Shown one piece after another: positions 19,823 to 31,626 of a stretch of DNA of 39,019 nucleotides. Each line of letters starts with the position of its first letter. Within the stretch, counting starts at the first letter, position 1. Under the pieces are notes generated by a model. The model did no database searches. It was not told the origin of the DNA and worked only from the letters and a program-made list of their open reading frames with translations. The DNA is from Solirubrobacterales bacterium (GTDB taxonomy: Bacteria > Actinomycetota > Thermoleophilia > Solirubrobacterales > Solirubrobacteraceae). Both the position numbers and the translations under genes were made by a program. The DNA lies in assembly GCA_027315255.1 (NCBI GenBank), contig DAHUYL010000223.1, positions 1-39,019 of the forward strand, in the 5' to 3' direction.

Positions 19823-20894
19823 GGACCACAAGCTACCTGTCTCGACAATCCGGCTGCCGCACGGCGTCACCGCTGCCGCATGCTGCGTCGCCGTGGCGGC
19901 GGCGCTGGCCGGCTGCGGCTCGAGCTCTCCGCCGCCTGCAACCCCCGGGGGGTCGAGCGCGCCACAAGGCTCGACCACGGCGCCGCTGGCATCCAACTGG
20001 CCGGGCGGCAGGCATCCAGGCGCGAGTGGGAGCGGTAGCGGCGCCTCCGCTCCGACGGTCGCCGCCAGTGCGACGCCCGCTCCGGTGACCTCGGCCGCGC
20101 TGCCGGGGGTCGGGAGCTCCGCGGTCGCCGGCGTATCGCACGGCGGGGTCGCCGCGGTCAGCGCGCAGGGCGGCATCGGGGCGGTCGCGCAGACGAGCCT
20201 CGGCACCGTCGGGCAAGCTTCGAGTGCGGTGGCGCCGCCGCCGGCCGCGACGACGCCGCCGACGAGCCCGACGCCGCCTGCGACCCACACTTCGACGACT
20301 CCCGCGACGAGCGCCCATCCGGCGCCGCCGCCGACGACCCACACCGTCTCGAGCGCCCCGACCGGCGCGCACCCGTCGCATCCGGCGCCTTCCGGGTCGA
20401 GCACGACCGGCCAGGCCAAGCCCAAGGTGATCGTGAAGGTCAAGGTCGAGACGCGGGTGCTCACCAAGGTCGTGACCAAGACCGACACGGTCGTCAAGAC
20501 GGTGGCGCCGAACATCCCCGCGGGCGCCTACCTGCCATCGACGCAGCCGCCGCTCACGCTCGCGAGCTTCGTCGCCCCGGGGGCGAACATCGGCTGCAGC
20601 CTCGCTGGCGGGGTCGCGCGCTGCGACATCCAGAACCGCGTTTGGACGCCGCCGGCCCAGCCCGAGAGCTGCAAGCTCGACTGGGCCCAGGGACTCGAGG
20701 TCGGCGGATCAGGGCCGGGGAGCTTCGTCTGCGCCGGCAACACCGTGCTCGACGGTCGCACGCTCGTCGCCGACGGTCGAGACGATACGTTCGGCCCGTT
20801 TCGCTGCGAGATCCGGCAGTTCGGCGTCGCCTGCTACGACACCGCCGACAAGCACGGCTTCTCGATCAGCCGCACCGGCTACACCACCTTCTGA
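19821..20894 (+). CDS. Lipoprotein with a C-terminal DUF6636-like domain
   Basis: The protein has 357 residues from the ATG at 19821. The signal peptide ends in LAGC (ALAGCGSSS). About 200 residues of Pro/Ala/Thr/Ser-rich spacer follow, probably spanning the cell wall. The C-terminal 105 residues form a compact domain, FVAPGANIGCSLAGGVARCD, then WTPPAQPESCKLDWAQGLEV, ending FGPFRCEIRQFGVACYDTADKHGFSISRTGY. This has six regularly placed cysteines and matches DUF6636-type domains of actinobacteria, whose function is unknown. Its ATG and that of the divergent aldehyde dehydrogenase share the same CATG, so the real start may lie slightly downstream. Confidence 0.8.
   Translation: MDHKLPVSTIRLPHGVTAAACCVAVAAALAGCGSSSPPPATPGGSSAPQGSTTAPLASNWPGGRHPGASGSGSGASAPTVAASATPAPVTSAALPGVGSSAVAGVSHGGVAAVSAQGGIGAVAQTSLGTVGQASSAVAPPPAATTPPTSPTPPATHTSTTPATSAHPAPPPTTHTVSSAPTGAHPSHPAPSGSSTTGQAKPKVIVKVKVETRVLTKVVTKTDTVVKTVAPNIPAGAYLPSTQPPLTLASFVAPGANIGCSLAGGVARCDIQNRVWTPPAQPESCKLDWAQGLEVGGSGPGSFVCAGNTVLDGRTLVADGRDDTFGPFRCEIRQFGVACYDTADKHGFSISRTGYTTF
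19830..19835 (-). promoter_or_regulatory. -10 element TAGCTT, leaderless promoter of the aldehyde dehydrogenase
   Basis: On the minus strand TAGCTT is followed by exactly 7 bases and the ATG at 19822. The layout is the same as at 491 and 1792. The hexamer lies inside the first codons of the divergent lipoprotein gene. Confidence 0.45.
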
Positions 20895-20908
20895 GATCGA
20901 CGCGCGTG

Positions 20909-21582
20909 TCAGCGGGGCGTGCGGGCGACCTCCTCCAGCTGCCGGTCGAGCTGATCGAGCTGACGTTCGAGCCCGTCGAGATGGGTGAGCATCTCCGAGA
21001 GCGCCTGGTGCGCGAGCGCGTCGTCGAGCTGCTGACGCGCGACCCAGGCCCGGTGCATCTTCGTCCATGGCGAGCTGCCCTCACGGTAGACCCGGCCGTG
21101 GCGGAGCAGCTCCTTGCTGACCCGGTGCCGGGCCGCGGTCCGCGCGCAGCGCAGATCATCGCGGCAGCGCATCGATCACGCAAGGCCTCGATCTCGGGCG
21201 AGGGTGGCTGGACGTAGGAGAGCTGCCCGCCGCGGTAGAGCCGCACCGGCTTCTTCGCGTCGCGCCGGTCGGTCTTGATCCGGTCGCCGGCGCGGACCGG
21301 GATCAACGACGGCGCGATCACATCGCACGCGACCCCGAACTCGGTCAACGGCCGCGACAGATCGAACCCGCCCGGCCCGGCCTCGTGGCAGACCGCCAGC
21401 CCGACCGGCCCGCCGAGCCGGTCGATCAACCGGCGGACCGCCGTTCGCGTGGTCTCGATCTGCATGAGCTCCGGCTCACCGCCAGTCGGCGGCAGCGTCG
21501 CGGCAACGATCGACAGCTTGTGCACATCCAACGCGACCCACGGACGCACATCCGTGGGCGCGACCGAGCTGACGTCCGGCAT
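20909..21582 (-). pseudogene. IS110-family transposase (DEDD recombinase), frameshifted and truncated
   Basis: From the ATG at 21582 the N-terminal RuvC-like domain is clear: WVALDVHKLSIVAATLPPTG with the first Asp, VCHEAGPGGFDLSRPL with Glu, and IKTDRRDAKKPVRLYRGGQL with the DxxD pair. Near 21172-21176 the frame shifts, and the next frame gives RCRDDLRCARTAARHRVSKE, then WTKMHRAWVARQQLDDALAHQ and LDRQLEEVARTPR before a stop. One added base would join the two. The C-terminal Transposase_20 domain with the catalytic serine is missing, so the protein cannot be active whatever the status of the frameshift. Confidence 0.85.
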
Positions 21583-25127: not shown

Positions 25128-25153
25128 TATTCTTGTCTCATGTCTGTACAAGA
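25128..25153 (+). promoter_or_regulatory. -10 element and overlapping inverted repeat before the lipid operon
   Basis: TATTCT (25128-25133) lies 6 bases before the ATG at 25140, as expected for a leaderless transcript. The inverted repeat TCTTGT-N11-ACAAGA (25131-25153) overlaps both the hexamer and the first codons, where a bound repressor would block transcription. No regulator gene is adjacent. Confidence 0.45.
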
Positions 25154-25226
25154 TCTGTCGAAGGAAGCCCGGCTGAAGCGGGTCTGGCCGCTCGCCACCA
25201 CGCAAGCCGCGGCAGATCGGCGATGA
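25140..25226 (+). CDS. 28-residue leader ORF of the lipid operon
   Basis: The ATG at 25140 opens a 28-codon frame (MSVQDLSKEARLKRVWPLAT, then eight more residues) that stops inside the start codon of the FAD oxidoreductase (ATGA at 25223-25226). The peptide is basic and probably helical. No family is recognised. The exact ATGA coupling and the -10 hexamer 6 bases upstream suggest it is translated, possibly only to deliver ribosomes to the next gene. Confidence 0.4.
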   Translation: MSVQDLSKEARLKRVWPLATTQAAADRR

Positions 25227-26467
25227 GGATCGCGGTCGTCGGCGCCGGGGTCTCAGGGTTGGTGGTGGCCCACCTGCTGCACCCGGCGCACGAGGTCACG
25301 GTGTTCGAGGCCTGCGGCTATGCCGGCGGTCACACGAACACGATCCGGGTCGACACGCCGAACGAGACGCATCAGGTCGACACGGGGTTCATCGTGTTCA
25401 ACGATCGCAACTATCCGAGCTTCGAGCTCCTGCTGCGCCGGCTGGGCGTCGCGTGGCAGCCGTCGACGATGAGCTTCAGCGTCAGCGACGGCATCGGGGA
25501 CTTCGAGTACAGCAGCACGTCGCCGAACGGGCTGTTCGCGAAGCGGGCGCATCTCCTGACGCCGTGGTTTCTCCGCATGGTCGCCGACCTGGCGCGGTTC
25601 AATCGCGCCGCCCGCGAGCTGCTCGACGATCGTGCGCCCGACGTCTCGCTGCGCGAGTGGCTGGAGCAGCATCGGTTCTCGCCCGCGTTCGTCGAGCGGC
25701 TGATCGTGCCCCAGGCGTCGGCGGTGTGGTCTGCGGCGCCGCGGCAGATGTGGAGCTTCCCGGCGCGGTTCCTGGTCGAGTTCTTCGACAACCACGGGAT
25801 GCTGGCGTTCCGCGGCCGGCCGCGCTGGCGCACGGTTCGTGGGGGTTCGGCCCGGTACGTCGAGGCGTTGACGGCTCCGTTCTCGCACCGGCTGCGGCTG
25901 GGGACCCCCGTGCAGGCGGTGACCCGCCACCACGATCACGTGCTGGTGAAGCCGCGGGACGGCGAGGCGGAGCGGTTCGATCAGGTGGTGCTTGCGACCC
26001 ATTCCGATCAGGCGCTGGCGCTGCTGGCCGATGCCAGCGACCGCGAGCACGAGATCCTCGGCGCGATCCCGTATCAGCGCAACGAGGCCGTGCTGCACAC
26101 GGATGCGCGGATGCTACCCCGCCGCCGGCGCGCCTGGGCGAGCTGGAACTACCACCTGCTGGCCGAGCCGAAGCCGCTGACGACGGTCACCTACCACATG
26201 AACCGACTGCAATCGCTCCGGGCGGAGCAGGAACTCTGTGTGACGCTCAACCACAGCGACACGATCGACCCGGCCCGGGTGATCCACCGGATCTCGTACG
26301 CCCATCCGGTCTACACACAGGCCGGGGTGGCGGCGCAGGCGCGGGTGGGGGAGATCGACGGGCGTAATCGCACGCATTTCTGCGGCGCGTACTGGGGCTG
26401 GGGCTTTCACGAGGACGGCGTGGTCAGTGCGCTGCGCGTCGGCGAGCGGTTCGGACTGGGGCTGTGA
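25223..26467 (+). CDS. FAD-dependent oxidoreductase (COG2907-like, amine-oxidase fold)
   Basis: The protein has 414 residues. The N-terminal FAD site is RIAVVGAGVSGLVVAHLL, with the acidic residue in VTVFEACGYAGGHTNTI. Then come VDTGFIVFNDRNYPSFELLL, VPQASAVWSAAPRQMWSFPA and RWRTVRGGSARYVEALTAPF. The C-terminal cofactor motif is HFCGAYWGWGFHEDGVVSAL. This is the oxidoreductase regularly found with DUF1365 and a CFA-synthase-like methyltransferase in bacteria. It is expected to act on a fatty-acyl substrate, but the reaction is not proven. Its GTGA end is shared with the DUF1365 gene, and its start with a 28-codon leader ORF. Confidence 0.9.
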   Translation: MRIAVVGAGVSGLVVAHLLHPAHEVTVFEACGYAGGHTNTIRVDTPNETHQVDTGFIVFNDRNYPSFELLLRRLGVAWQPSTMSFSVSDGIGDFEYSSTSPNGLFAKRAHLLTPWFLRMVADLARFNRAARELLDDRAPDVSLREWLEQHRFSPAFVERLIVPQASAVWSAAPRQMWSFPARFLVEFFDNHGMLAFRGRPRWRTVRGGSARYVEALTAPFSHRLRLGTPVQAVTRHHDHVLVKPRDGEAERFDQVVLATHSDQALALLADASDREHEILGAIPYQRNEAVLHTDARMLPRRRRAWASWNYHLLAEPKPLTTVTYHMNRLQSLRAEQELCVTLNHSDTIDPARVIHRISYAHPVYTQAGVAAQARVGEIDGRNRTHFCGAYWGWGFHEDGVVSALRVGERFGLGL

Positions 26468-27210
26468 GTTCGAGCTGCATCTACGAGGGCGTGATCCGCC
26501 ACCGGCGCGTGGAGCCGCGGCGGCAGTTCAGCCATCGGCTGGCGCTGGTCTATCTCGACCTCGCGGAAGTGCCGCGGCTGCTGGGCGGGCGGCTGGTATC
26601 CACGCGTCCGGGTCTGGTGCGCTTTCGCCGACGCGACTACCTTGGCGATCCCGCGGTGGCGCTCGACCGCGCGGTGCGCGAGCTGGTCGGCGAGCGCACG
26701 GGCGGGCAACCGGAGGGTCCGATCCGCCTGCTCACGCAGCTTCGCTCGTTCGGGCACTGCTTCAACCCGGTCAGCTTCTACTACTGCTTCGAGCCGGACG
26801 GCGAGCGCGTGCAGGCGGTCGTCGCGGAGGTGACGAACACGCCGTGGGGGGAGCGGCACGCGTATGTCCTCGAGGCCGGCCAGGCGAGCGGCGGTGTGCT
26901 GAGGGCGCAGTTCGAGAAGGCGATGCACGTCTCGCCGTTCATGGGCATGGATCACCGCTACGACGTTCGTGCGAGCACTCCCGGTGCCAAGCTGTCGGTC
27001 CACATCGGCTCGATCCGCGCTGGGGACACCGTGTTCGACGCGACGCTGTCGCTGCGACGCCGGCGGCTGACTCGGGCGGCGCTGGTCTCGACGACCGCCC
27101 GCTACCCGTTCGCAACGGTTCGCGTGCTGACGCTGATCTATGCCCACGCACTGGGGGCGGCGCTCGCGGGCGCGCCGCTGCACCCCCACCCAGGGGCGGC
27201 CCGGAGATGA
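26464..27210 (+). CDS. DUF1365 family protein
   Basis: The protein has 248 residues from a GTG. DUF1365 signatures are clear: IYEGVIRHRRVEPRRQFSHR at the N terminus, LLTQLRSFGHCFNPVSFYYC in the centre, followed by VVAEVTNTPWGERHAYVL, then KAMHVSPFMGMDHRYDV. The family has no established activity. Its constant association with the flanking FAD oxidoreductase and CFA-like methyltransferase points to the same lipid modification. Both ends overlap the neighbouring genes (GTGA at the start, ATGA at the end), so the three proteins are made together. Confidence 0.92.
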   Translation: MSSSCIYEGVIRHRRVEPRRQFSHRLALVYLDLAEVPRLLGGRLVSTRPGLVRFRRRDYLGDPAVALDRAVRELVGERTGGQPEGPIRLLTQLRSFGHCFNPVSFYYCFEPDGERVQAVVAEVTNTPWGERHAYVLEAGQASGGVLRAQFEKAMHVSPFMGMDHRYDVRASTPGAKLSVHIGSIRAGDTVFDATLSLRRRRLTRAALVSTTARYPFATVRVLTLIYAHALGAALAGAPLHPHPGAARR

Positions 27211-28454
27211 TCGAGCGGCTTTCCCGGTGGATCGTCTCGATCCTGCTGCGACGCGTCAGTGTCGGCAGCCTGATCGTCGTCGAGCGCGGCGAGCGCCACA
27301 TCTACGGTTCCGGCGCCCCGCTCGCAACGGTTCGCCTGCACTCCTCCCGAGTCTGGCCGATGCTGCTTCGAGGCAGTCGCGGGCTGGCGGAAGCGTTCGC
27401 CCAGGGCCTCTGGGATTCGCCCGATCTGGTGGCGCTGATCAGGCTCGCGGCCCGCAACGCCGCTGGGCTCGACCGGCTGCGCGCGCGGCTGACGCCGATG
27501 CGCTGGCCGCTGCAGCGCGCCGCCGCACTGCTGCGCCCTGCCACCAGGCGCCGGGCGCGACGCGACATCGCCGCCCACTACGACCTCGGGAACGAACTGT
27601 TCGCGTCCATGCTCGACCCGACGCTCAGCTACTCGTGCGCGATCTTCGACCGTGACGGGATGACGCTCGAGCAGGCTCAGGTGGCCAAGCTCGAGCGGAT
27701 CTGCGAGAAGCTCGAGCTGGGTCCGCGGGATCGCGTGCTGGAGATCGGGAGTGGCTGGGGGGCGTTCGCGATTCACGCGGCGAGGACGCGGGGGTGTCAT
27801 GTCACCACGACGACGATCTCGCGCGAGCAGCACGACTACGCGCTCGAGCAGGTGCGGCGAGCGGGGCTCGACGACAAGGTCACCGTGCTGATGGCCGACT
27901 ACCGGGAGCTGCGCGGTCGCTACGACAAGCTGGTCTCGATCGAGATGATCGAGGCGGTCGGCTGGCGCCGGTTCGGCAGCTTCCTCGGCAAGTGCTCGCA
28001 GCTGCTATGCGCCGACGGGGCGATGCTGCTGCAGGCGATCACGATCGACGATCGCGCCTACGAGGTCGAGAAGGCGTCGAGGTCGTTCATGAACAGCTAC
28101 ATCTTTCCCGGTGCGTGCCTGCCGTCGCTCGCAGTGATCTCGCGCGAGCTCGCGAGGCGAACCGACCTGCGACTCGCCGGCCTCGAGGATCTCACCGGCC
28201 ACTATGTCGAGACGCTCGGTCGCTGGCGGGCGAATTTCACCACCAACACGCCGGCCCTGGCAGAACTCGGCTACGACGAACGGTTTCAGCGGATCTGGAC
28301 GCTCTACCTCGCCTACTGCGAGGCGGGATTTGCCGAGCGGCGGATCTGCGACATCCAGCTGCTCCTGACGAAACCCCGCGCCCGGCTCGCCTGCGGCGAG
28401 CGCCCGCCGAGCCGGGGCGGGATCCAGCCGCACGAGTTCGCCAAGAGCGCATGA
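27207..28454 (+). CDS. Cyclopropane-fatty-acyl-phospholipid synthase family methyltransferase
   Basis: The protein has 415 residues. An N-terminal lipid-binding part (RHIYGSGAPLATVRLHSSRV) is followed by the methyltransferase domain. Key segments are IAAHYDLGNELFASMLDPTL, SYSCAIFDRDGMTLEQAQVA, the SAM motif VLEIGSGWGAFAIHAART, TVLMADYRELRGRYDKLVSI with the EMIEAVG segment, and YIFPGACLPSLAVI. These enzymes add a carbon from SAM to a double bond of membrane lipids, giving cyclopropane or methyl-branched chains. In Rhodobacter relatives of this gene set take part in furan fatty acid formation. The product here is unknown. Confidence 0.93.
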   Translation: MIERLSRWIVSILLRRVSVGSLIVVERGERHIYGSGAPLATVRLHSSRVWPMLLRGSRGLAEAFAQGLWDSPDLVALIRLAARNAAGLDRLRARLTPMRWPLQRAAALLRPATRRRARRDIAAHYDLGNELFASMLDPTLSYSCAIFDRDGMTLEQAQVAKLERICEKLELGPRDRVLEIGSGWGAFAIHAARTRGCHVTTTTISREQHDYALEQVRRAGLDDKVTVLMADYRELRGRYDKLVSIEMIEAVGWRRFGSFLGKCSQLLCADGAMLLQAITIDDRAYEVEKASRSFMNSYIFPGACLPSLAVISRELARRTDLRLAGLEDLTGHYVETLGRWRANFTTNTPALAELGYDERFQRIWTLYLAYCEAGFAERRICDIQLLLTKPRARLACGERPPSRGGIQPHEFAKSA

Positions 28455-29461
28455 CCCGGTCGCTGCTCGACACCGTCCTCGACCGCAGCGTGATCGGCGG
28501 CTACACGAACGTGGGCTACGGGATCCGCAGCCGCGGCTGGAGCGCGCAGCGGATGCCGTCACTGGCCGGCAGGGTCGTGATGGTCACGGGTGCCACCTCG
28601 GGGCTTGGGCTCGCCGCCGCGAACGGCTTCGCGCGGCTCGGCGCGTCGGTGTGGCTGGTGGTCCGAAGCGAAGCGCGCGGTCGACGGGCGCGGCTCGAGA
28701 TCGCCGAGCGGCCCGCCGGCCACGATGTCCACGTCGGCCTGTGCGATCTGAGCGATCTCGGCTCGGTCAGGGAGTTCGCCGGACGGTTCGCGGCGGAGGC
28801 CGGACGCCTCGATGTTCTCGTGAACAACGCAGGCGTTCTCACCAGAGAGCGACGGATCTCGAGCGACGGGATCGAGCTGACGTTCGCGACCAACGTGCTG
28901 GGCCCGTTCCTGCTCACGCGCCTCCTGCTGGCGCTGCTTCAGCGAAGCGCCCCATCACGGGTCATCAACGTGTCCTCGGGAGGCATGTACACGCAGCGGA
29001 TCAGGGTCGACGATCTGCAGAGCGAGCGCGGCGGGTTCGACGGCCCGACCGCGTACGCGCAGACAAAGCGCGCGCAGGTGATCCTCACCGAGATCCTGGC
29101 GCAACGGCTCGAGGGTCGCGGCGTGGTCGTGCACGCGATGCATCCCGGGTGGGCGGACACCCCGGGCGTCAGGAGCTCCCTGCCGCGCTTCTACCGCCTG
29201 ACGCGACCGTTGCTGCGCACGCCCGAGCAGGGGGCCGACACGATCGTCTGGCTCGGCGCCGCCGACGAGCCCGGCCGCAGCACCGGTCTGTTCTGGCACG
29301 ACCGCCGGCCACGCCCGACGCATGTGCTGCCGTGGACGCGAGAGACCCGGCAGGAACGCGAGCGGCTCTGGAGGCAGTGCGTCGAGCTCAGCGGCTCCGA
29401 GCAGGACCCCACCACCTCAGCGAAGGAGAAACCCGATGGCCCGCTATCGAGCTGCACTTGA
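28451..29461 (+). CDS. Short-chain dehydrogenase/reductase
   Basis: The protein has 336 residues, longer than the 250 of classical SDRs because of an N-terminal extension of about 40 residues that includes VLDRSVIGGYTNVGYGIRSR. The Rossmann motif is VVMVTGATSGLGLAAANGFA, followed by DVLVNNAGVLTRE and the catalytic INVSSGGMY plus TAYAQTKRAQV (YxxxK). This extended type resembles the dehydrogenase/reductase SDR members (DHRS12/retinol-dehydrogenase-like). It starts inside the CFA-like stop (ATGA) and overlaps the next gene by 26 bases. It is probably part of the same lipid pathway. Confidence 0.92.
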   Translation: MTRSLLDTVLDRSVIGGYTNVGYGIRSRGWSAQRMPSLAGRVVMVTGATSGLGLAAANGFARLGASVWLVVRSEARGRRARLEIAERPAGHDVHVGLCDLSDLGSVREFAGRFAAEAGRLDVLVNNAGVLTRERRISSDGIELTFATNVLGPFLLTRLLLALLQRSAPSRVINVSSGGMYTQRIRVDDLQSERGGFDGPTAYAQTKRAQVILTEILAQRLEGRGVVVHAMHPGWADTPGVRSSLPRFYRLTRPLLRTPEQGADTIVWLGAADEPGRSTGLFWHDRRPRPTHVLPWTRETRQERERLWRQCVELSGSEQDPTTSAKEKPDGPLSSCT

Positions 29462-30413
29462 CGCCACGCGCGAGCGCGATCATGTGTTCGCGTACCTCAG
29501 CGACTTCTCGACCACGCAGGAATGGGACCCTGGCGTCGTCGAGGCCGAGCGGCTGAGCGGCGCCGCGATCGGGGAGGGGTCCGAGTTCCGGCTGGTGGCG
29601 GAGTTCCTCGGTCGCAGGACGGCGCTCGTCTACCGGATCGTCGAGTACGACCCGCCGCGGGCGGTGACCTTCCGCGGCGAGAACGCGACCGTGACCTCGA
29701 CCGACAGGATCACGTTCGACACCGTCGAGCGGGGAACGCGCATCACCTACGACGCGGAGCTGGTGCTGAAAGGACCGCTGCGCATCGCCGACCCGCTGCT
29801 CGGGCTCGCGTTCAACCGGGTCGGCGACCGCGCGCTGGCCGGCCTTGGCAACAAGCTCGCGCCGGTGCAGACGGGTCAGTTCGGTCCTCTGAGCGGGCGC
29901 TCGCTCGATGGGCGCGCCTACGAGCTGCCGGGCGATCTCGCCAAGCCATACAACCTGCTCGTGGTTGCGTTCCGTCGCGACCAGCAGGCGCTCGTCGACC
30001 GGTGGCTGCCGTGGCTGACCCGGCTCGAGCAGCTGCGCGCGGACGTTGCGGTGTACGAGCTGCCCGTGCTCCCGTCGAGCTACGGCCCCGCACGATGGTT
30101 CATCGACGGGGGCATGACCCGAGGCATTCCGGATCGCGCCGCCCGCGCACGCACGGTCACCGTGTACACCGATGTCCAGAAGGTCGTCGACAAGCTCGGA
30201 CTCGAAGGCACCGGCACGATCGCCGTCGCCGTCGTGGAACGCTCCGGCCGCATCCTCGCCCGCGAGGTCGGCGACTTCGACCAGCTGAAGGCCGGACGCC
30301 TCGCGACGGCACTCGTGCCCGAGTCAGCGGCGACCGCGGCGGTCGCATCACGCGGCCCGTACCCGTCACTGGCGCGACTCGGGCGATCGCAATCGATCGC
30401 CGACACGGGATGA
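29436..30413 (+). CDS. Fusion of an SRPBCC lipid-binding domain and a thioredoxin-fold domain
   Basis: The protein has 325 residues and an AAGGAG site. Residues about 1-140 are SRPBCC: MARYRAALDATRERDHVFAY, FSTTQEWDPGVVEAERLSG, then TYDAELVLKGPLRIADPLLG. Residues about 160-310 have a thioredoxin-like fold without CxxC: YNLLVVAFRRDQQALVDRWL, then ADVAVYELPVLPSSYGP and GTIAVAVVERSGRILAREVG. This second half resembles ATP10-like thioredoxin-fold proteins. The fusion suggests a protein that binds a hydrophobic ligand and works with the upstream enzymes. It is the last gene of the operon. Confidence 0.8.
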   Translation: MARYRAALDATRERDHVFAYLSDFSTTQEWDPGVVEAERLSGAAIGEGSEFRLVAEFLGRRTALVYRIVEYDPPRAVTFRGENATVTSTDRITFDTVERGTRITYDAELVLKGPLRIADPLLGLAFNRVGDRALAGLGNKLAPVQTGQFGPLSGRSLDGRAYELPGDLAKPYNLLVVAFRRDQQALVDRWLPWLTRLEQLRADVAVYELPVLPSSYGPARWFIDGGMTRGIPDRAARARTVTVYTDVQKVVDKLGLEGTGTIAVAVVERSGRILAREVGDFDQLKAGRLATALVPESAATAAVASRGPYPSLARLGRSQSIADTG

Positions 30414-30687
30414 CCAGGCAGACTTGGACTGATTCTTGACACTGTGGCGCGCCGACGGATCGCTTGCCATGGGGGGTTGACAGTCGTGGCCAGCGACCTA
30501 TTGGACGGACCAGAGAGGATTGACATAGAACAAGCGGCTGATCCGATGGGTGGAGGCCTCGGGGCCCACGTTGCGAGGCTTGCCTGAGGTCTGGGGCACC
30601 TACCGCCTTTGCTCGAGGCTCTGTCGGCGGTCCCGGCCTCCACCAGCACTTCTGCTTCTCTGAGCCGCGCTACACACGTTGGACGAG
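30414..30687 (+). other. Intergenic region upstream of the sigma factor
   Basis: 274 bases without a gene. It holds three TTGACA hexamers at 30436, 30477 and 30520, spaced 41 and 43 bases (about four helical turns). Only the middle one has a good -10 partner. The stretch from 30545 to the start codon shows no clear structure and would be a long leader. Confidence 0.6.
30477..30504 (+). promoter_or_regulatory. TTGACA-N16-TATTGG promoter of the sigma factor gene
   Basis: TTGACA (30477-30482), 16 bases, TATTGG (30499-30504). The same spacing and TATT -10 recur at 31645 and 32337, the other two promoters of this stress module, which suggests autoregulation by the sigma factor itself. Confidence 0.55.
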
Positions 30688-31626
30688 ATGGCGACGGAAT
30701 CCGAGCCGATCACACGTGATGAGAGCGAGCTGCTGCAGGCCGAATCGCAGACCGCCCGCACGCTCGATCAGCAGCTCGCGGACCGCTTGCGTCACCGCCA
30801 GCCAGGGGGCGAGACGAGCTCCGCCAGCTACCTGTCCGACCTCGGCGAGCGCCCGCGGCTCCCGGCCGCGGTCGAGCGACGCCTGATCGACGCGGCGCAG
30901 GCCGGCGACCGCCGCGCCCGCGAAGAGCTGGTCGAGGCGTTCCTGCCCGTGATCGCGCGCGTCGCGCGCGTCTACCGCGGCTCGCGGACGATCACTCGGC
31001 TCGAGCTGATGCAGGAGGGTGTCGTGGGGCTGCTCCGCGCGCTCGAGCGCTATGACGCGAGCCTCGGGGTGCCATTCTGGGGCTACGCGGCATGGTGGGT
31101 CCGCCAGGCGATGCAACAGCTGATCGCCGAGCTCACCCGGCCGCTGGTGCTGTCCGACCGCGCCCTCCGGCAGCTCTCACAGCTCAAGCGCGCGCACGGT
31201 GACCATCTCGCCGAGCACGGGCGCGAACCGAGTGGCATGGAGCTTGCGGCCCGCACCGGCCTCACGCCCGCGCAGGTCGGCGAGATGCTAGCGCTCGAGC
31301 GCGTGCCGCAGTCGATGGACGAACCCGTCCAGGGCGCCGAAGGGGAGCTTGGCGCGTTCGGGGAGCTGCTCGCCGACCCGCTCTCCGGCGACGCCTACGA
31401 GCAGCTGCTCGATCACTCGGAGATCGAGCAGATCCGGGCGCTGCTCGGAAGCCTAAACGAGCGCGAGCGGATGATCCTCCGCGCGCGCTACGGTCTCGAC
31501 GGCGCCGAGCAGTCGCTGCGCGACGTCGGCCAGCGGATCGGGCTCAGCGGTGAGCGGGTGCGACAGATCGAGCAGCGCGCACTCGGCAAGCTCCGCGTGG
31601 CCGCGAACCGCAGCGAGCGCAACTGA
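30688..31626 (+). CDS. RNA polymerase sigma factor, sigma-70 family (group 2-like)
   Basis: The protein has 312 residues from the ATG at 30688 (a TTG at 30679 is also possible). Region 1.2 is SASYLSDLGERPRLPAAVER. Region 2 includes LMQEGVVGLLRALERYDASL and the -10-recognition helix VPFWGYAAWWVRQAMQQLIA. Region 3 follows, and region 4 ends with the helix-turn-helix SLRDVGQRIGLSGERVRQIE. Region 1.1 is absent, and the residues match the RpoD/HrdB/SigB-like class rather than ECF factors. It sits next to a J-domain gene and hsp20, and its promoter type is shared with theirs, so it is a good candidate for a stress sigma factor. Confidence 0.92.
   Translation: MATESEPITRDESELLQAESQTARTLDQQLADRLRHRQPGGETSSASYLSDLGERPRLPAAVERRLIDAAQAGDRRAREELVEAFLPVIARVARVYRGSRTITRLELMQEGVVGLLRALERYDASLGVPFWGYAAWWVRQAMQQLIAELTRPLVLSDRALRQLSQLKRAHGDHLAEHGREPSGMELAARTGLTPAQVGEMLALERVPQSMDEPVQGAEGELGAFGELLADPLSGDAYEQLLDHSEIEQIRALLGSLNERERMILRARYGLDGAEQSLRDVGQRIGLSGERVRQIEQRALGKLRVAANRSERN

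What the first reader, a model, noticed from the sequence alone, without database searches (positions are those of the whole stretch)
25128..30413. Coupled lipid-modification operon with an unusual SRPBCC/thioredoxin-fold partner
Six frames in a row overlap, four by an ATGA/GTGA stop-start and the last by 26 bases: 28-codon leader, FAD oxidoreductase, DUF1365, CFA-synthase-like methyltransferase, SDR, SRPBCC-thioredoxin fusion. The FAD/DUF1365/CFA triad is known as a conserved group, and relatives in Rhodobacter take part in furan fatty acid formation. The added SDR and the two-domain last protein are not part of the usual triad as I know it. The set could make a new modified fatty acid (methylated, oxidised, then reduced) with the fusion protein as carrier or chaperone.
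Basis: partly seen in the sequence, partly recalled or inferred. Interest (0 to 1): 0.7.

Follow-up and report, generated by a model that had tools for sequence, protein, structure and literature searches.

The report
Light-linked membrane-lipid operon with fused partner
A bacterium related to Solirubrobacterales carries a tightly packed set of genes that probably remodels its membrane fats under light stress and ends in a rare fused protein of unknown role; the core is a known kind, the fusion and the apparent light switch are a new variation.

Summary
The six overlapping frames are real. FAD oxidoreductase, DUF1365 and CFA-type methyltransferase form a near-fixed triad (FAD in 66, CFA in 63 of 67 DUF1365 loci), homologous to photolyase-SDR-triad operons of Gammaproteobacteria. 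An SDR beside the triad is therefore not new, though this one is of another subfamily. SDR plus SRPBCC is a separate pair: 24 loci, 6 with DUF1365. The SRPBCC–thioredoxin-fold fusion is genuine but rare: 6 found, 3 in a triad operon. Its C-terminal domain lacks conserved cysteine and belongs to a family some of whose members score as ATP10, the mitochondrial ATP-synthase assembly factor. The '28-codon leader' overlaps three 11-bp repeats of the kind bound by the B12 photoreceptor CarH; like repeats precede this genome's CarH-like gene and some relatives' SDR genes. Best reading: a light- or photo-oxidative-stress-inducible phospholipid-modifying operon, repressed by a CarH-like protein encoded elsewhere. 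A furan or methyl-branched product is inferred, not shown. New variant of a known kind.

The parts
25128..25133 (+). candidate -10 element TATTCT, six bases before the leader ATG; TATGAT at the same place in the second copy of this genome
   Evidence: sequence by eye; inference
25132..25164 (+). three tandem 11-bp direct repeats (CTTGTCTCATG, TCTGTACAAGA, TCTGTCGAAGG), CarH-type operator candidate
   Evidence: published repeat nnnnTnnACAn (PMC9304148)
25140..25226 (+). 28-codon leader ORF overlapping the repeats; coding status doubtful (possible leaderless-start coupling ORF)
25223..26467 (+). FAD-dependent amine-oxidase-like oxidoreductase, UfaD-like (414 aa)
26464..27210 (+). DUF1365 protein, UfaO-like (248 aa, GTG start)
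27207..28454 (+). SAM-dependent CMAS/CFA-type fatty-acyl methyltransferase, UfaM-like (415 aa)
28451..29461 (+). SDR oxidoreductase, 336 aa, with about 40 residues before the Rossmann domain match
29436..30413 (+). fusion protein, 325 aa: SRPBCC/START-like domain (residues about 1-142) plus ATP10-related thioredoxin-fold domain without conserved cysteine (residues about 148-303)

Best explanation
A light- or photo-oxidative-stress-inducible operon that remodels phospholipid acyl chains. In the dark a CarH-like AdoB12-type repressor, encoded in trans on contig C54, is proposed to sit on the 11-bp repeats across the promoter; light (or loss of B12) releases it. The CFA-type enzyme then methylates unsaturated acyl chains on phospholipid, the FAD enzyme desaturates the methylated chain and the DUF1365 protein inserts O2-derived oxygen, giving a methyl-furan or related protective chain. 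SDR and SRPBCC-ATP10-related fusion are a second module of the same regulon: the SDR probably reduces a carbonyl of an oxidised lipophilic product, and the START-like half probably binds that lipid. Shown by computation: gene content, coupling, homology, repeats, recurrent neighbourhoods. Inferred: repressor binding, light response, product, and the roles of SDR and fusion.
For: Triad homologous to the proteobacterial operon: FAD 47%, DUF1365 39%, CFA 43% identity to Salinivibrio proteins encoded with MerR, phrB, a SnoaL-like protein and an SDR. Three-step furan chemistry shown for UfaM, UfaD and UfaO (PMC7380195, passages). Tandem repeats of the strict half-site at spacing 11 and no other (8-15): FAD 2 of 67, SDR 5 of 32, CarH-like 5 of 14 upstreams, against 0 of 183 upstreams of EPI, SRPBCC, DUF1365 and CFA genes. 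In the own genome the repeats also lie before the second operon copy and before the carH-like gene itself. CarH-like protein: MerR and B12-binding_2 above cut-off; best solved relatives include CarH (5c8d) at E 1.7e-39; Wx9EH in 10 of 12 family members. CarH-like gene in 9 of 24 SDR-SRPBCC pair stretches, 4 of 10 other SRPBCC stretches, 0 of 73 with neither. In the same genus the triad shares a stretch with a MerR-DICT regulator in 7 and with photolyase in 6 of the 8 stretches L121-L128; elsewhere in the set MerR-DICT is in 2 and photolyase in 1 of 46 stretches without DUF1365. A bin titled Gemmatimonadetes combines CarH-like, an SRPBCC of another type, ATP10-related, desaturase and triad genes.
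Against: No lipid, expression or light data. Only one of the three window repeats fits TnnACA fully. The pattern is not enriched genome-wide (17 matches against 22 for the reversed control). With other half-site definitions other spacings and controls also hit: SDR 3 of 32 at spacing 9 with the second definition; DUF1365 4 of 66 and CFA 1 of 63 at spacing 11 with the loosest. With the strict half-site both positive FAD upstreams come from this one genome, and most SDR (27 of 32) and CarH-like (9 of 14) upstreams have no match. None before the FAD gene of G370, the closest operon. The MerR-DICT/photolyase context is absent from three further same-genus stretches (window, L038, L071). The C-terminal B12 domain of the CarH-like protein is below Pfam's cut-off (27.4 against 32.1), its E-x-H motif lacks the following G/P, and one full-length relative (L044) lacks Wx9EH. 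The Rhodobacter SDR was dispensable for furan fatty acid; window and proteobacterial SDRs share only 24-25% identity. The CFA-type enzyme could as well make a cyclopropane or a simple methyl branch.
Confidence: 0.55

Rival explanations
1. The triad makes a cyclopropane, methyl-branched or methylene chain, not a furan; DUF1365 and FAD proteins are partners in that chemistry, and the operon answers general stress.
For: The methyltransferase aligns well with solved cyclopropane synthases (5z9o, 6bqc). An Arabidopsis protein similar to both UfaM and UfaD and a DUF1365 protein were placed in this pathway by similarity and lie on lipid droplets; the passages read show no product (PMC10940516). A CFA synthase gene is induced by blue light in Vibrio cholerae (PMC5241685, passages).
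Against: The E. coli-type CFA model scored 250 against its cut-off of 400; the His of E. coli LLHTIG is Gln here (alignment; its role in the active site is recalled, and Gln may not exclude ring formation). UfaD- and UfaO-like genes are present together, as in the furan pathway.
Confidence: 0.3
2. SDR and the SRPBCC fusion have nothing to do with the triad's chemistry; the window joins two unrelated modules that only share a regulator, or just landed together.
For: Only 6 of 24 pairs have DUF1365 in the stretch; the linkage label needs 7 changes on the FAD tree, 6 of them forced by well-supported branches; ATP10-related genes have the triad nearby in 2 of 73 loci.
Against: Same operon in three genomes (window, G370, G002); linkage on the tree is more clustered than in any of 500 shuffles; recurrent company of the triad with SDR and SRPBCC-type genes in several arrangements and phyla.
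Confidence: 0.3
3. The 28-codon leader is a translated regulatory or coupling peptide, not only operator DNA.
For: Open and in frame with the same ATGA overlap in both copies of this genome (28 and 48 codons, by eye), with a -10-like hexamer six bases before the ATG, as in leaderless starts; the FAD start lacks a clear ribosome site (by eye).
Against: The two leaders agree only in their first nine codons, which are the repeats; the ATGA overlap follows from the FAD N-terminus in most relatives (14 of 17).
Confidence: 0.2

Closest known systems
Rhodobacter sphaeroides RSP1087-1091 plus ufaM (RpoE/ChrR regulon, furan fatty acid pathway)
   Same: FAD (UfaD), DUF1365 (UfaO), CFA-type methyltransferase (UfaM), an SDR in the operon, photo-oxidative stress setting (passages)
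   Different: Regulator is RpoE/ChrR; ufaM lies apart; other operon members are a symporter and a hypothetical protein, no SRPBCC-ATP10 fusion named; SDR dispensable there
Class II LitR light operon of Pseudomonas mendocina (PME6650-6610) and the Salinivibrio and Pseudoalteromonas operons
   Same: SDR, FAD and UfaM/CFA-type genes (DUF1365 annotated in the latter two), stress- or light-type regulator, close or overlapping genes
   Different: Photolyase in the operon and, in the latter two, an NTF2/SnoaL-like protein; Pseudomonas sites are TGTACA-N12-TGTACA; SDR of another subfamily (tested for the latter two); no SRPBCC fusion
CarH/LitR AdoB12 photoreceptor regulons (Thermus, Bacillus, myxobacteria)
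   Same: Tandem 11-bp repeats at the promoter; regulator with RxWERRY and Wx9EH
   Different: Best-known targets are carotenoid genes (recalled); here a lipid-modifying operon with the regulator in trans; B12 motif incomplete
ATP10 (PF05176), mitochondrial ATP-synthase assembly factor (role recalled)
   Same: Relatives L222, L234 and L265 score above Pfam's cut-off over the whole domain
   Different: The window domain itself has no match; bacterial, here fused to SRPBCC; function unknown

Membership tests
UfaM/UfaD/UfaO furan fatty acid pathway | FAD, DUF1365 and CMAS proteins together | tested here: met
UfaM/UfaD/UfaO furan fatty acid pathway | orthology to the experimentally proven enzymes | tested here: inconclusive
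   35-47% identity to operon homologues of Salinivibrio and Pseudoalteromonas; the Rhodobacter sequences were not compared
UfaM/UfaD/UfaO furan fatty acid pathway | methyl-diene and furan acyl chains made | not testable with these tools
   needs lipid analysis
CarH/LitR regulon | tandem 11-bp direct repeats at the promoter | tested here: met
   three tandem units; spacing 11 only for the strict half-site; full TnnACA in one of three units
CarH/LitR regulon | regulator with RxWERRY, Wx9EH and B12-binding motif | tested here: inconclusive
   RAWERRY and Wx9EH met for the C54 protein; E-x-H met without following G/P; B12-binding domain below cut-off
CarH/LitR regulon | B12- and light-dependent repression | not testable with these tools
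   needs binding and expression assays
ATP10 (PF05176) | score above the curated cut-off | tested here: not met
   no match for the window domain; three relatives pass. Called ATP10-related only
Redox-active thioredoxin | CxxC or a conserved Cys | tested here: not met
   no invariant or nearly invariant Cys in 51 sequences
SRPBCC/START-like (Polyketide_cyc2) | score above cut-off and fold | tested here: met
   57.4 against 27.4 bits; fold matches
Rv0910-family toxin (NF047960) | score above cut-off | tested here: not met
   42.9 against 100
E. coli-type CFA synthase (NF008686) | score above cut-off | tested here: not met
   250.3 against 400

The most novel reading that the evidence does not exclude
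The SRPBCC-ATP10-related fusion is a lipid-sensing membrane-protein chaperone: under light, when the operon rewrites or repairs acyl chains, the START-like half binds modified or oxidised lipid delivered by the SDR, and the ATP10-related half protects or reassembles a membrane complex such as ATP synthase Fo. This would directly link photo-oxidative lipid remodelling to membrane-complex assembly and give a role to bacterial ATP10 relatives, for which search 78 listed no described function.
Probability: 0.1. Interest if true: 0.75.

Novelty: new variant of a known kind. Interest (0 to 1): 0.48.

Why it matters
If right, the light-induced furan-type lipid pathway known from Proteobacteria also operates in Solirubrobacterales, wired to a CarH-type B12 photoreceptor instead of RpoE/ChrR or class II LitR. 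That would extend CarH targets to membrane lipids. The recurrent SDR-SRPBCC-CarH neighbourhood gives two poorly understood proteins a testable setting, and the fusion makes a guess about bacterial ATP10 relatives testable.

Tried and rejected
Thiol-redox role of the thioredoxin-fold domain: rejected, no conserved Cys in 51 sequences. Toxin label for the SRPBCC half: rejected, far below cut-off. Leader as an ordinary conserved peptide gene: not supported. Sigma factor 30679-31626 as part of the operon: no sign, since the fusion is followed by an NmrA-like (EPI) match in L181, L182 and L218. ATP10-related genes as a general light marker: not supported; triad nearby in 2 of 73 loci and CarH-like gene in 2 of 73. 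Sequence search of solved structures with the domain profile: nothing convincing (best E 0.61). First fold search with the whole fusion listed only SRPBCC-type structures in the rows shown, hence the separate domain model. Papers: the listings of searches showed no title or abstract start describing an SRPBCC-ATP10 fusion or a CarH-controlled DUF1365 operon; the library lacks most subscription journals; PMC2579311 was not held; PMC11796333 was searched for six terms without a passage.
Full report
1. Observation. The window is 71% G+C and is a whole contig, C150, of a 4.31-Mb genome in 231 contigs, 92% complete. Close relatives in the named collection include bins titled Solirubrobacteraceae and Solirubrobacterales (L215, L216). 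The six frames lie as described, with ATGA, GTGA, ATGA and ATGA overlaps and a final 26-base overlap. Pfam gives Amino_oxidase, DUF1365, CMAS, adh_short and Polyketide_cyc2, each above cut-off. DUF1365 has one match in the genome.

2. The triad. I compared 113 stretches: 40 around SRPBCC or ATP10-related hits, 60 around DUF1365 from 60 of the 103 DUF1365-positive genomes, 12 around ATP10-related hits, and the window. The set is thus chosen by these genes, not random. Of 67 stretches with DUF1365, 66 have the FAD gene, 63 the CFA-type gene, 12 the SDR (at least 48% identity) and 9 the SRPBCC (at least 40%); contig ends explain some misses. The triad is the fixed unit; DUF1365 occurs in 103 of 299 genomes sampled from the class. 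Window proteins are 47%, 39% and 43% identical to the FAD, DUF1365 and CFA proteins of a Salinivibrio operon that reads MerR, phrB, NTF2/SnoaL-like, SDR, FAD, DUF1365, CFA. Pseudoalteromonas has the same with a sigma factor and ChrR upstream, Azospirillum a related cluster. In Rhodobacter and Rhodopseudomonas, UfaM, UfaD and UfaO make the furan acyl chain on phospholipids with oxygen from O2 (PMC7380195, passages read).

3. The SDR is not foreign to this company. RSP1087 is an SDR (PMC7074977, passages), dispensable for the furan acid. The Pseudomonas mendocina light operon has SDR, FAD and UfaM (PMC9758184, passages). But the window SDR has 336 residues and is only 24-25% identical to the SDRs of Salinivibrio, Pseudoalteromonas and Azospirillum (238-248 residues), so it is an analogous partner rather than the same gene.

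4. SDR-SRPBCC pair. SDR and SRPBCC lie within 300 bases of each other in 24 of 113 stretches; 6 of these have DUF1365 (L038, L071, L135, L175, L181, window), 13 an NmrA-like gene (EPI). On a tree of 67 FAD proteins, 13 rows that I labelled as linked to SDR or SRPBCC (L038 and L071 dropped out for coverage) need 7 changes of label, 6 forced by well-supported branches; 0 of 500 shuffles were as low. Linkage is thus clustered but arose or was lost repeatedly. The window FAD is sister to that of G370, a genome of another genus, with support 100/100.

5. The fusion. In-frame fusions: window, G013 (L032/L218) and G002 (L033/L215, cut by a contig end) of the same genus, G370 (L181/L216) and G277 (L182/L219) of the same family, and L217, a bin titled Chloroflexi whose neighbouring genes match at 57-71% identity. 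G377 (L189/L285) has a fragment at a contig edge that may be a seventh. Triad in the same operon: window, G370, and G002, whose contigs C220 (DUF1365-CFA-SDR-SRPBCC start) and C538 (SRPBCC end-ATP10-related-EPI) share an exact 99-base end: 3 of 6. Elsewhere the two halves are separate genes. The C-terminal domain was found in 19 of 201 genomes of the order, fusions included, and in 73 of 108 candidate loci from bins titled Actinomycetota, Chloroflexi, Phycisphaerales and others. Pfam finds PF05176 (ATP10) in 10 of 51 members of alignment A3 at E up to 1, best 1.6e-7; L222, L234 and L265 pass the cut-off of 22.3 bits over the whole domain (31.3, 29.1, 28.6), the other members scanned singly do not, and the window has no match. 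The domain model (pLDDT 95.7) matches Sco-, TlpA/ResA- and peroxiredoxin-type structures with TM-scores of about 0.4-0.7. No Cys is conserved; the family motif is A-F-x4-Q-x2-V-D-x-W, E-x-P, I-D-G-G-M, R-T-x-T-x-Y-x-D (invariant or nearly so). The N-terminal domain matches START/Bet v 1-like structures.

6. The switch. At 25132-25164 lie three tandem 11-base units. Two overlapping matches to YTGTM-N6-YTGTM occur in the window where 0.27 are expected; 1 of 100 shuffles had two. Genome-wide the pattern has 17 matches, the reversed control 22, so the motif alone proves nothing; but 4 of the 17 fall at three telling places: the window operon (2), the second operon copy on C54, and 25 bases before the match of a CarH-like gene on C54. 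Across the 113 stretches the strict tandem occurs at spacing 11 and at no other spacing from 8 to 15, before FAD (2 of 67, both from this genome), SDR (5 of 32) and CarH-like genes (5 of 14), and in 0 of 183 upstreams of EPI, SRPBCC, DUF1365 and CFA genes; shuffles average at most 0.05 (start codons estimated from tblastn). A second half-site definition brings in L175 and L037, and also gives SDR 3 of 32 at spacing 9; the loosest gives control hits (DUF1365 4 of 66, CFA 1 of 63 at spacing 11). Published CarH operators are tandem 11-base repeats nnnnTnnACAn, three in Thermus and four in Bacillus, overlapping -35 or -10 (PMC9304148, passages). The C54 protein matches the solved CarH 5c8d at E 1.7e-39, has RAWERRY and Wx9EH, B12-binding_2 above and B12-binding below Pfam's cut-off. 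CarH-like genes stand in 9 of 24 pair stretches, 4 of 10 other SRPBCC stretches and 0 of 73 stretches with neither SDR nor SRPBCC; of the remaining stretches L137, with SDR but no such SRPBCC, also has one.

7. Setting in the genus. Of the 8 same-genus DUF1365 stretches L121-L128, 7 hold a MerR-DICT regulator and 6 a photolyase; three further same-genus stretches (window, L038, L071) hold neither. In this genome photolyase, a DUF1731 epimerase and MerR-DICT are on C51 without triad genes in the 9 kb read. The window may thus be a triad that moved from a photolyase/MerR-DICT cluster to a CarH-type promoter together with SDR and fusion (inference). L227, a bin titled Gemmatimonadetes, has CarH-like and SRPBCC (another type) genes on one strand and fasciclin, ATP10-related, fatty acid desaturase, FAD, DUF1365, CFA and DUF1295 genes on the other: every kind of part except the SDR.

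8. Mechanism. Shown and inferred steps are in Best explanation. The SDR step (carbonyl reduction on oxidised furan chains) is chemistry inferred from family and setting; no substrate is known.

9. Verdict. Known core, new wiring, and a rare fusion with an ATP10-related domain: a new variant of a known kind, interest 0.48. Main limits: no lipid or light data, draft genomes with many contig ends, and a locus set chosen by the genes in question.

Noticed in passing
L034 6460-7264 (own genome, contig C54): Second copy of the operon start: same leader repeats and about 51 codons of the FAD gene run straight into an unfused SRPBCC gene (about 73% identical to the window's), with the region between missing; NmrA-like and CarH-like genes follow.
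   Followed up: partly
L294 161-3505 (own genome, contig C51): The single photolyase match of this genome lies with a DUF1731 epimerase and a divergent MerR-DICT regulator; in seven same-genus stretches such a MerR-DICT gene shares the stretch with the FAD-DUF1365-CFA triad.
   Followed up: partly
L227 5781-14131: Cluster in a bin titled Gemmatimonadetes with CarH-like, SRPBCC, fasciclin, ATP10-related, desaturase, FAD, DUF1365, CFA and DUF1295 genes.
   Followed up: partly
L288 6914-7435: Pseudoalteromonas homologue of the ATP10-related domain begins like a lipoprotein signal (by eye), so some members may be exported.
   Followed up: no
L038 10-3953, L071 and L033 (genome G002): G002 carries two operon copies, one ending in an unfused SRPBCC followed by EPI (L038), one with the fusion across a contig break (L071/L033).
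   Followed up: partly
window 30679-31626: Sigma-70 factor with regions 2-4 downstream on the same strand, followed by DnaJ-domain and Hsp20 genes; other fusions looked at are followed by an NmrA-like gene instead.
   Followed up: partly
window 20866-21582: IS110-type transposase remnant (Pfam score below cut-off) near lon.
   Followed up: no
L036 7328-7792 and relatives: A DUF427 protein is in the stretch of 8 of the 24 SDR-SRPBCC pairs; role unknown.
   Followed up: no
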